Shown: positions 3,666-59,005 of the stretch, one piece after another
Layout: each line of letters begins with the position of its first letter
How positions within the stretch are numbered: the stretch's first letter is position 1
NCBI RefSeq assembly: GCF_002234675.1
Contig: NC_019862.2
Coordinates: forward strand, 24,858,160-24,922,159
Length of the DNA: 64,000 nt
Source: Oryzias latipes
Taxonomy: Eukaryota > Chordata > Actinopteri > Beloniformes > Adrianichthyidae
Reading direction: 5' to 3'
Position numbers and translations under genes: made by a program
The notes under the pieces: model-generated
Databases searched by the model: none
Told to the model about the DNA's origin: nothing
The model's input: only the letters and a program-made list of their open reading frames with translations

Positions 3666-28354
<24,689 letters not shown>

Positions 28355-30115: not shown

Positions 30116-30179
30116 GTAACCCTTGTGCTATCCTAGGCACATTGGGAGTTGGGTCATCTAGAACCACTAGACCTTTTTC

Positions 30180-32354
30180 GGTAACAGTTTATATTAAGAT
30201 TCCTTAACAAGCTTTGTTAACACATTTACAAGCATTATAAATGAATTTATAGGGTGTTAGTAAGACATTTATTAGTACAATAAGTATAATAAGGTTTATT
30301 AAATTACTTAGTTAACACATTTACAAGCATTATTATTAGGATGTTTTCAAGATGCGAATGATGCATTTATTGATATAGGTGCCTAACAAATGTGTCAGTG
30401 TTAATAAGCTTAATAAGATTTATTAACAACCTTTGTTAACAAATTAAGAAGCATTATTTTTGTTTGGGGCTCTTGTAAGATATTTATTAGCATTATAGAT
30501 GCCTGACACAACCCTAAGTGTTCATAAGCTTAATAAGTTTTATTAACTAACTCAACAAATTAATAGGCTTTATTAATGTGTCAGATGCTAGTACAATATT
30601 TATTAGCATTATAGAAGTCTTGCAAATACCTGAAAGTGTTAATAAGATTTATTAACATCTAAAGTCAGACCATTGTCTTCTAAATCCATATTACTAAACT
30701 GCTTATAAGCTTTACAAATGTATTAATTAACTTTGTTAATAGTTTATTAATTGTTTTGCAGCACCTCATCTAACGTGTGGACGTTTTTTAGCACAAACAA
30801 CCACAAAGCATAAAGATTGTAAAAAGAAATTTATGACATTAAAACAGACTAAACATACACAAATCGTTCTGTAAAAGATATATAATAATTTAATTCAGAC
30901 AAATATTTTTTTTTAAAAACATATATGCTGGTGTTGGATGACTAGCATCATAGCTAATAAGGATAAAGTATTAGCATCTATCCTGAGTGAAACATTCATT
31001 GCAAATCCCATCACCAGGAGACAATTCTCTGCATTCAATGCCAACTGCATTCAACCACTGTTGCCTTGCTTCAAAGTCCACAAGAAAGTTGCACAAGCCA
31101 GTCATTTTTGAAGAACGAAGACAATAAACCTACAGGAGCCATGCTAATGCTAACACGCTAACCTGCCCATCTTTGATTATGAAAGGAATCAAAGATGGGC
31201 AGGTTAACTAATGTCACCATTGGCTAATGAATATGTCAATCAAACTCATCAGCAAAACAGGCATGCTTGCTTTCAGCCAATTGAATGGCCTCTTAGACTT
31301 TGCTTTCACACAGGTGACGAAAAAAGCCCCGCCCATCTTTGATTCCTTTCATAATCAAAGATGGGCAGGTTAGCGTGTTAGCTTTAGCATGGCTCCTGTA
31401 GGTTTATTGTCTTCGTTCTTCAAAAATGACTGGCTTGTGCAACTTTCTTGTGGACTTTGAAGCAAGGCAACAGTGGTTGAATGCAGTTGGCATTGAATGC
31501 AGAGAATTGTCTCCTGGTGATGGGATTTGCAATGAATGTTTCACTCAGGATAGATGCTAATACTTTATCCTTATTAGCTATGATGCTAGTCATCCAACAC
31601 CAGTCTATATGTTTTTAATTTTTTTTATTTGTCTGAATTAAATTATTATATATCTTTTACGGAACGATTTGTGTATGTTTAGTCTGTTTTAATGTCATAA
31701 AGTTCTTTTTACAATCTTTATGCTTTGTGGTTGTTTGCGGTAAAAAACATCCTCACTTTAGATGAGGTGCTGCAAAACAATTAATAAACTATTAACAAAG
31801 TTAATTAATACATTTGTAAAGCTTATAAGCAGTTTAGTAATACGGATTTAGAAGACAATGGTCTGACTTTAGATTTTAATAAATATTATTAACACTTTCA
31901 GGTATTTGCAAGACATCTATAATGCTAATAAATATTGTACTAGCATCTGACACATTAATAAAGCCTATTAATTTGTTGAGTTAGTTAATAAAACTTATTA
32001 AGCTTATGAACACTTAGGGTTGTGTCAGGCATCTATAATGCTAATAAATATCTTACTAGAACCCCAAACAATAATAATACTTCTTAATTTGTTAACAAAG
32101 GTTGTTAATAAATCTTATTAAGCTTATTAACACCGACACATTTGTTAGGCATCTATAATATCAATAAATGCATCATTGGCATCTTGAAAACATCCTAATA
32201 ATAATGCTTGTAAATGTGTTAACTAAGTAATTTAATAAACCTTATTAGACTTATTGTACTAATAAATGTCTTACTAACACCCTATAAATTCATTTATAAT
32301 GCTTGTAAATGTGTTAACAAAGCTTGTTAAGGAATCTTAATATAAAGTGTTACC
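30180..32354. mobile_element. Giant foldback element: two ~1.02-kb inverted arms
   Basis: From GGTAACAGTTTATATTAAG at 30180 the left arm runs to about 31200. The right arm, about 31331-32354, is its reverse complement with only scattered mismatches. A loop of about 130 bp separates them. Flanks CCTTTTTC (30172-30179) and CATTTTTC (32355-32362) form a 7/8 match, suggesting an 8-bp target duplication. The outer part of each arm is built of tandem repeat units; the inner part carries a small conserved open frame. No transposase is present. The end motif resembles short palindromic fish MITEs, but at 2,175 bp this is much larger. Confidence 0.88.
31426..31560 (+). pseudogene. 44-codon open frame in foldback arm, zinc-finger-like
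   Basis: The frame starts MTGLCNFLVDFEARQQWLNA and continues with GICNECFTQD before a TAA. The spacing of W, aliphatic residues and the C-x2-C-F ending is loosely like the C-terminal half of a THAP finger, a DNA-binding domain of P- and Kolobok-type transposases. The mirror copy is at 30971-31105 on the minus strand. Homology is unproven; it could be a chance frame or a captured gene piece. Confidence 0.25.
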
Positions 32355-32492
32355 CATTTTTCTTCAATAATTTGTGATCTTCACTGGTGTCCATGGATTA
32401 CATGAAATCTTTCCACCTTTATCCACCTTTGTCATGGTAGGGAGAACACGTCAAAATAAGGGTGGGGTCATCTAAGATAGCACAAGGGTTAA

Positions 32493-35300: not shown

Positions 35301-35307
35301 ACCACGT

Positions 35308-35451
35308 AACCATTTTTCTTCAATGATTTGTGATCTTCACTGGTGTCCATGGATTACATGAAATCTTTCCACCTTTATCCACCTTTTTCATGGTAGGGAG
35401 AACACGTCAATGTAAGGGTGGGGTCATCTAAGATAGCACAAGGGTTAAGGA
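35308..35451. mobile_element. Truncated piggyBac-type MITE (right half)
   Basis: From TTTTTCTTCAATGATTTGTG to GATAGCACAAGGGTTAA at 35435-35451. It matches the right half of the copy at 58795-59005; the left half is missing. The junction at about 35304 reads ACCACGTAACC. Confidence 0.8.
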
Positions 35452-41645: not shown

Positions 41646-42631
41646 CCTTATATTTTACTTTTAATTCAAATTTAAAAAAAAATATATATATATTTATAAA
41701 AAAAAAATTTTGGCAGACACAGTGGCAATAAATACATTTTTTACCAACTATATTTTGGTGTAGTGTGTGGGAATTGTTCACATGGAAGGCAGTTTGAGGA
41801 CAGCTACAAGCACCTGTCGACTCACAAGCGCCCCCTGAAGGTGTAAACAGAGTTTGAAGGTAATAATGTCAGTCCTCACATCAAATCTACAAGCTCGTCC
41901 ATTTAGCCACATTTTTACCTTAATAACAGACTACTGTTTGCTTTATCTCAAGTTTCCTTTGCGTTTGTTTTCTTTGCACAATTAGTTAAAAGAAAAAATA
42001 AAGAGGATTAATGTGCTGATAACGCATACTGTTAATGCTTTTAGATCAGGAAAAGCACAATTATTACAAAGAAAATGTCAAGATATGTTTAAATAACATT
42101 AAAAAACACCCAAATTAAGCTTGTAAACACATTCTGCTACATTTGTTTGTATTGCTCTTGTTATGGGCATATCCCTGGTTTGATTGTGAGTGATGAAAGC
42201 AAACCAAACATTAAGGTGTTACATTTATGAACAGTTCATTAGAGCCATGATAGATAGATGTGTTCAGCTGCTCTGTTCAGAGGGCTGAAACTAGCATTTC
42301 ATCGTTTTTGAAGCAGTAAAATCTGGTATTTAAAATGAAACAATATATTGACTTTTTTTCAAAGTGGTTATCTCTTTTTTTGCATCAAACATCAGGGTTT
42401 AGTCCCTTTGACGATTCATCGAGGGATTTGTGGTCCACACACATACAAAAAAAATAGATATTACATTTTGTTTAAAGTTACACACAAAAAAATCATTGAA
42501 TCATGTAATTTCATTTCGCAACAGGTGTTTAGGAGAAAGGGGCAAAGTCAGAGGGGAGGCAGGCAGTCTGGCTGTTGTGCAGGAGCTCAGTGGCGCATGT
42601 GTGAGGTCCGTGAGGGCGCGCGACCGCTGGC

Positions 42632-53902
<11,271 letters not shown>

Positions 53903-58292: not shown

Positions 58293-58794
58293 AAATGAAG
58301 AGCTTAAATAATGACTTTGTCTTCAACATGGCTGACTGTGTGTCTGGTGGGACACACCCTTAGCAAGAAATATGTCTGCAAGGAGCATGCACCAACTCTC
58401 TGCACATCCTGTGTACAGTAGTGCAGACTAAAAGCTCCACTATGGGCATAAAGAACTGTTCCATGTTCTGACTTTTTGACTTATGTTCTATTAGGATTTT
58501 CTGTTTCACACAAAAACATTAAAAAAGGGGAGAAAATCTCTCTAACTCTGCCACTGCTGGTCCCAAGCCTGGATAACAAAAGAAGAGGGTGAGTGAGATT
58601 TTATAGTGATTAACCAAAAATATGTCACTAAAAGGAAGATAAAAATAAGTAAATAAATATGTTCATAAAAGGAAAGGGGTCACTAACATCAGCCAATATG
58701 ATTTATTCTGTGAGAGTCATGAATGTGCACCCCAAATTAGAAAAGAGTTGGATGAAGATTTTTTAAGATCCACTAACTCTAAAACTGAGAGTGT

Positions 58795-59005
58795 AACCCT
58801 TGTGCTATCCCAGGCATTTTAACATTGGGAGTTGGGTCATCTAGACCCACTAGACAGTGCTCTGAACCTTTTTTCTTCAATGATTTGTGATCTTCACTGG
58901 TGTCTATGGATTACATGAAATCTTTCCACCTTTATCCACCTTTGTCATGGTAGGGAGAACACGTCAATATAAGGGGGGGGTCATCTAAGATGGCACAAGG
59001 GTTAA
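58795..59005. mobile_element. PiggyBac-type MITE, uninterrupted copy
   Basis: About 210 bp from AACCCTTGTGCTATCCCAGG to GATGGCACAAGGGTTAA. It is the only copy in the window without an insertion or truncation. It defines the family seen at 18484, 30117, 35308 and 35863. Confidence 0.82.

What the first reader, a model, noticed from the sequence alone, without database searches (positions are those of the whole stretch)
30180..32354. Giant foldback element: near-identical 1.02-kb inverted arms
The left arm (30180-31200) and the reverse complement of the right arm (31331-32354) agree almost base for base, so the element is young or its arms are being homogenised. With a loop of about 130 bp it could form one of the longest hairpins expected in a fish genome. 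It has hAT/P-like 8-bp flanks (7/8 match), no transposase, and landed inside a piggyBac-type MITE. If transcribed, it would give a very long double-stranded RNA and possibly siRNAs.
Basis: seen in the sequence. Interest (0 to 1): 0.75.

Follow-up and report, generated by a model that had tools for sequence, protein, structure and literature searches.

The report
Foldback DNA transposon in fish genome
A defective jumping gene made of two nearly identical kilobase-long mirror-image arms sits inside an older, smaller jumping gene in what looks like a fish genome; its build matches a known kind of transposon seen in flies and worms, so it is a good clean example rather than a surprise.

Summary
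Left arm 30180-31200 and the reverse complement of right arm 31331-32354 are 96.8% identical over 1024 columns, with a 130-bp spacer. Both ends read GGTAACA(G/C)TTTATATTAAG, flanked by CCTTTTTC/CATTTTTC (7/8). The element splits a TTAA-type MITE; another copy at 58793-59005 shows the unoccupied site, so an assembly foldback is unlikely. The outer 461 bp of the left arm is four degenerate 108-124-bp tandem units, the first being the terminus itself; then come an inner domain and a short middle domain. This is the architecture reported for foldback transposons (Tetris, Galileo, Tm1). No Pfam match reached a cut-off: non-autonomous, presumably mobilised in trans; superfamily undetermined. Arm divergence (K2P 3.0%) resembles that among four host-MITE copies (1.5-3.9%). 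Differences are not significantly clustered once grouped into events (p=0.39), though they are when counted singly (p=0.011), so homogenisation is not required. Double-stranded RNA is physically possible but unsupported. Copy number and an autonomous partner were untestable: the genome search gave no answer in seven attempts.

The parts
30116..30171 (+). left part of the host MITE (TTAA-type, CCCTTGTGCTATC end), carrying a 12-bp gap next to the insertion
   Evidence: 87% to 58793-58855; alignment
30172..30179 (.). left target-site duplication CCTTTTTC
   Evidence: 7/8 match to 32355-32362; the site occurs once in MITE copy 58793-59005
30180..31200 (+). left arm of the foldback element
   Evidence: 96.8% to the reverse complement of 31331-32354
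30180..30198 (+). left terminus GGTAACAGTTTATATTAAG
   Evidence: 18 of 19 bases equal to the right terminus
30180..30640 (+). four degenerate tandem units u0-u3 (108-124 bp, 66-74% alike); u0 is the terminus itself
   Evidence: anchors AATAAG.TT.ATTAA at 30288, 30412, 30532, 30641
30761..31158 (+). left inner domain, not tandemly repeated
   Evidence: self-comparison; GC 35% (30771-31200) against 27% in the outer part
30971..31129 (-). 52-codon stop-to-stop ORF, present letter for letter in both arms; no family matched
   Evidence: no hit in Pfam; its 44-residue ATG part no hit in PDB or protein search
31159..31206 (.). small palindrome at the inner end of the left arm
   Evidence: 83% self-complementary, 48 bp
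31201..31330 (.). middle domain (loop), 130 bp
   Evidence: CCAAT on both strands and a CCCCGCC box at its edge, no significance test
31331..32354 (-). right arm of the foldback element
31402..31560 (+). second copy of the 52-codon ORF
32336..32354 (-). right terminus GGTAACACTTTATATTAAG
32355..32362 (.). right target-site duplication CATTTTTC
32363..32492 (+). right part of the host MITE
   Evidence: 95.7-96.5% to 35307-35448, 18622-18483 and 58867-59005

Best explanation
It is a non-autonomous foldback (long terminal inverted repeat) DNA transposon. Shown: near-identical 1.02-kb arms, arm ends that coincide with the ends of the inserted DNA, an 8-bp target duplication (7/8) inside a MITE whose unoccupied form exists in the window, tandem copies of the terminus in the outer arms, an inner domain, a short middle domain, and no recognisable coding sequence. 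Inferred: a transposase encoded elsewhere bound the repeated subterminal units, excised the element and inserted it. The arms were near-identical at insertion and have since drifted apart by point changes, a 3-bp indel and one apparent micro-inversion of an A/T run. The long arms probably grew in a parent element in two steps: tandem amplification of the end, then recruitment of neighbouring internal sequence into both arms, as reported for Galileo copies with extended arms.
For: Arms. Ends and duplication. Empty-site MITE copy. Tandem units including the terminus. No Pfam domain in six frames. Same architecture in print: Tetris (terminal, ~220-bp repeat, inner and middle domains, 8-9-bp duplications in its complete copies, no conserved ORF; passages), Galileo (arms to about 1.25 kb with tandem repeats; copies with the longest arms lack the transposase ORF; passages), Tm1 (passages). 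Clock: arm p-distance 0.029 against host-MITE pairwise 0.015-0.039 over 130-131 bases.
Against: One copy only was seen: no second copy of the arms or of the 19-base end in the 64-kb window, and none in two collections that are viral and prokaryotic. The two duplications differ at one base, and the left flank has a 12-bp gap beside the insertion, so the left junction is not pristine. No transposase was identified.
Confidence: 0.86

Rival explanations
1. The palindrome is an assembly or sequencing foldback artefact: one arm was copied in reverse by a chimeric read.
For: Long palindromes are a known artefact type (general knowledge, no call).
Against: Arms differ at 33 of 1024 columns including an indel. 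The palindrome stops at the termini. The two flanks are the two different halves of one MITE, and the undivided form of that MITE exists at 58793-59005.
Confidence: 0.04
2. The arms are maintained for function: the locus is transcribed into a ~1-kb hairpin that feeds small RNAs or regulates the nearby slc1a7-like gene.
For: A read-through RNA would fold at -1663 kcal/mol with 994 arm-to-arm pairs against -448 (sd 8) for 8 dinucleotide shuffles. It lies about 1.8 kb upstream of the slc1a7-like start codon. The inner 265 columns hold 1 of the 33 differing columns.
Against: No transcript or small-RNA data. The nearest gene that I found runs away from the element. Spacing of the 15 difference events is not unusual (p=0.39). 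Outward transcripts from the loop would have the same sense and would not pair (reasoning).
Confidence: 0.04
3. The arms are actively homogenised by gene conversion or hairpin-templated repair, and the element is much older than 3% suggests.
For: Tandem units within an arm are only 66-74% alike (u0-u3) while the arms are 97% alike. The longest identical run is 220 columns (p=0.011 when every differing column counts once).
Against: After grouping neighbouring changes into events the run is not unusual (p=0.39). Divergence is close to that of the host MITE copies, and the insertion must be younger than its MITE. Old tandem units are expected if they were amplified before the arms formed.
Confidence: 0.1
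4. It is a fish member of the P superfamily (Galileo-like), its inner domain being a recruited piece of a THAP-domain transposase gene.
For: 8-bp duplication, 1-kb arms with tandem units, and a 44-residue ORF in both arms that looked THAP-like to my eye (spacing of W and C residues; recalled, not a test).
Against: Pfam lists no THAP match even at E<=10 or in six frames at E<=1. PDB and protein searches of the 44 residues found nothing. The terminus GGTAA does not fit YARNG, and differs from Izanagi and Pdre2 ends.
Confidence: 0.1

Closest known systems
Tetris foldback element, Drosophila virilis (PMC4079207; passages seen)
   Same: Long arms with a terminal domain, tandem repeats (~220 bp) that share a 37-bp stretch with the terminal domain, an inner domain, a middle domain, 8-9-bp duplications in complete copies, no conserved ORF, autonomous partner not found.
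   Different: Repeat length 108-124 bp here and the first unit is the terminus itself; no sequence comparison with Tetris was made.
Galileo, P superfamily, Drosophila (PMC3573991, PMC3688188; passages seen)
   Same: Arms up to about 1.25 kb, internal tandem repeats, long-armed copies without transposase ORF; the longest-armed copy has arms 95.2% identical.
   Different: 7-bp duplications in the copies described; a THAP/P transposase is known; terminal sequence not compared.
Tm1, Mutator/foldback family, root-knot nematodes (PMC3169594; passages seen)
   Same: Composite, internally repeated inverted ends; mostly 9-bp (8-10) duplications; non-autonomous copies; the two ends average 93% identical.
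   Different: Repeats are 13-15 bp; asymmetric terminal motifs; a copy encoding a MULE-type transposase is known.
Izanagi, P-like element of medaka (PMC2820524; passages seen)
   Same: Fish, non-autonomous, 8-bp duplication.
   Different: 1316 bp with 27-bp terminal repeats CAATGAGTTATATC..., a THAP remnant.

Membership tests
Foldback (long-TIR) DNA transposon, structural class | inverted arms of hundreds of bp to >1 kb making up most of the element | tested here: met
   2 x 1.02 kb of 2.175 kb, 96.8% identical
Foldback (long-TIR) DNA transposon, structural class | internally repeated arms | tested here: met
   four degenerate tandem units in the outer arm; Tandem Repeats Finder reports one 116-bp-period array, in the right arm only, at 31914-32133
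Foldback (long-TIR) DNA transposon, structural class | target-site duplication of 8-10 bp | tested here: met
   8 bp, 7/8, with an empty-site MITE copy
Foldback (long-TIR) DNA transposon, structural class | multiple copies in the genome | not tested
   The genome search gave no answer in 7 of 7 attempts; single copy in the 64-kb window
P superfamily (Galileo-like) | THAP domain / P transposase | tested here: not met
   a non-autonomous copy need not carry it
P superfamily (Galileo-like) | YARNG terminal motif as quoted in PMC2820524 | tested here: not met
   ends are GGTAA
hAT superfamily | 8-bp duplication | tested here: met
   7/8
hAT superfamily | hAT transposase, or the YARNG end (recalled for hAT) | tested here: not met
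   no Pfam domain; end GGTAA
Mutator-like (MULE) foldback | MULE transposase in a partner with the same ends | not testable with these tools
   no fish genome could be searched
piggyBac-type MITE (the host element) | TTAA duplication and shared CCCTTGTGCTATC ends | tested here: inconclusive
   9 matches of the 17-base TTAA-containing end with up to 3 mismatches, 0.2 expected; the left side reads GTAA in two copies; no transposase link tested

The most novel reading that the evidence does not exclude
A vertebrate foldback family of its own, with GGTAACA ends amplified in tandem and an inner domain recruited from an unknown transposase gene, showing that the foldback build arose independently in fish from a transposase lineage not yet linked to it.
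Probability: 0.2. Interest if true: 0.45.

Novelty: new member of a known kind. Interest (0 to 1): 0.3.

Why it matters
The passages seen here name foldback elements from flies, a midge, sea urchin, nematodes and plants. Four literature searches showed no fish foldback element with kilobase arms in the titles and abstract beginnings listed (20 of 60 papers, 20 of 56, 15 of 54, 1 of 1; the library holds open-licence papers only). A clean, nested and so roughly datable example in a fish would let the growth of long arms and their effect on genome stability be studied in a vertebrate. It is not a new kind of system.

Tried and rejected
THAP/P assignment: a 44-residue ORF present in both inner arms looked THAP-like by eye. 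Pfam at E<=10, PDB, the protein database and six-frame Pfam of the whole element at E<=1 gave no THAP. One weak HTH_61 match (E=0.025, 15.4 bits against a cut-off of 24.3) to an ORF on the opposite strand was set aside. Rejected as evidence.

Arm homogenisation: tested by spacing of differences. Singly counted columns p=0.011, grouped events p=0.39. The grouping distance (12 columns) was my choice.

Loop as a two-way promoter: CCAAT and GC-box letters were found, but no shuffle control was run on them, so not claimed.

Rfam: 0 families in the window. Other copies: the 19-base end in viral contigs, 0; a 31-base end in genome contigs, 0. Neither collection is meant to hold fish genomes, so this says little. 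The two 12-letter end terms in papers: 0. A paper search on long dsRNA in fish was seen as a listing only and not used. A look at the Merlin superfamily failed and was not made, so Merlin was not compared.

Full report
OBSERVATION. The window compared with itself gives one dominant inverted pair, 30180-31200 against 31331-32354, 96.8% identical over 1024 columns with 30 mismatches and 3 gap columns. A global alignment counts 33 differing columns of 1024, with 9 transitions and 21 transversions, K2P 0.030. Seven of the transversions are one block at 30906-30912, where the left arm has a run of T and the right arm, read on the same strand sense, a run of A; this looks like a micro-inversion or run-length changes, not seven substitutions. 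The spacer is 130 bp.

JUNCTIONS. The ends are GGTAACAGTTTATATTAAG (left) and GGTAACACTTTATATTAAG (right, reverse complement), followed outward by CCTTTTTC and CATTTTTC. A 7/8 match or better is rare across the window (44 of 61809 positions, this one included) but reaches 1.3% among random T-rich 8-mer pairs, so by itself it is modest. The stronger evidence is the host MITE. The left flank matches 58793-58855 and 19604-19553; the right flank matches 58867-59005, 35307-35448, 18622-18483 and, for its last part, 35950-35856. In the copy at 58793-59005 the MITE runs through, with the C(A/T)TTTTTC motif present once. Against a perfect reading, the left flank here lacks 12 bp that two other copies have (AGTGCTCTGAAC in the 58.8-kb copy, one letter different in the 18-kb copy), right next to the duplication, and has one T fewer. 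A small deletion beside the left end is the simplest account.

ANATOMY. The outer part of the arm is AT-rich (27% GC) and built of degenerate tandem units starting at an AATAAG.TT.ATTAA anchor at 30288, 30412, 30532 and 30641. I cut the units at these anchors. Units u0-u3 are 66-74% identical in pairs; u4 is 53-58% to the others and I do not count it; no background value was computed for aligned units. The terminus itself is unit u0, so the repeats are copies of the end. Short words of the units exceed dinucleotide shuffles (GCATTAT 5 against 0.19, ATTTATTA 5 against 0.29; 300 shuffles), but I chose the words after seeing the repeats. The inner domain (about 30761-31158) is not repeated and richer in GC. 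A 48-bp small palindrome closes the left arm (31159-31206); 31328-31372 matches it at 80% at the start of the right arm. A 52-codon stop-to-stop ORF is identical in both arms, but Pfam found no family for it, nor PDB or the protein database a relative of its 44-residue ATG part. ORFs of this length are common by chance.

CODING. Six-frame translations of the whole element with stops read as X matched 0 Pfam families at E<=1. Of 4 small ORFs scanned at E<=10, one had a single match far below its cut-off (HTH_61, E=0.025). The element is non-autonomous as far as this shows.

AGE. The four host-MITE right halves differ by 2-5 of 130-131 bases in pairs (0.015-0.039). The arms differ by 0.029. The insertion must be younger than its MITE. 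The arm divergence fits two arms that were near-identical at insertion and drifted since. Clustering of differences: longest identical run 220 columns, p=0.011 for single columns (20000 permutations); 221 columns, p=0.39 for 15 grouped events. The tandem units look far older than the arm pair, which fits end amplification first and arm duplication or equalisation later (inference).

RNA. Transcribed from outside, the element would form 994 arm-to-arm pairs at -1663 kcal/mol against a mean of -448 (sd 8) for 8 shuffles. Transcripts that start in the loop and run outward would have the same sense and would not pair. The nearest gene that I found is an SLC1A transporter on the minus strand. One exon at 10575-10901 has a significant Pfam SDF match (E=6.6e-12; 1 of 6 window ORFs given; the ORF at 12144-12455, which carries a recalled SLC1A motif, had none at E<=0.001). 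Further exons were picked by recalled motifs at 5.7, 7.9-8.0, 12.2, 16.8 and 23.8 kb and a start codon at 28354. The name slc1a7 (EAAT5) is recalled, not from a call. The element is thus about 1.8 kb upstream of that start codon, outside the coding part; an untranslated first exon beyond it cannot be excluded, and the window was not fully annotated.

COMPARISON. The same grammar (terminal domain, tandem-repeat domain, inner domain, middle domain, 8-9-bp duplications, no conserved ORF) is described for Tetris (PMC4079207, passages). Galileo shows arms up to about 1.25 kb, tandem repeats, and longest-armed copies that are never nearly complete (PMC3573991, passages); its transposase's THAP domain binds sites in two of four direct repeats of one long arm (PMC3688188, passages). 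Tm1 links such ends to a MULE-type transposase (PMC3169594, passages). The Tetris and Tm1 papers say that foldback build arises in different transposase lineages, so the build does not give the superfamily. Two fish P-like elements have different ends (Izanagi, PMC2820524, passages; Pdre2, PMC10983969, passages). The terminus GGTAA fails the YARNG motif quoted in PMC2820524.

GAPS. Copy number, the partner transposase and expression remain open.

VERDICT. A real, well-preserved, non-autonomous foldback DNA transposon nested in a MITE. Ordinary in kind, worth recording as an apparent fish example.

Noticed in passing
18651-19551: Another copy of the same host MITE (minus strand, halves at 19604-19551 and 18650-18484) is split by a ~0.9-kb insert with CAGTGTTTTTCAACC ends and an 8/8 duplication ATCTAGAC, hAT-like by its ends (recalled); no Pfam domain in the three plus-strand frames scanned.
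   Followed up: partly
35307-35448: A MITE right half that begins at nearly the same MITE position where the foldback element inserted in the host copy, with unrelated sequence upstream; possibly a second break or insertion at that spot.
   Followed up: no
5655-28354 (minus strand): SLC1A glutamate-transporter gene, slc1a7/EAAT5-like by recalled motifs; Pfam SDF on the exon at 10575-10901.
   Followed up: partly
42430-44479: ORFs that look like a small Shisa-like membrane protein (recalled); Pfam gave no match for the two ORFs scanned.
   Followed up: no
30906-30912 and about 31619-31626: A run of T in the left arm faces a run of A in the right arm (arms read in the same sense), suggesting a micro-inversion inside one arm.
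   Followed up: partly
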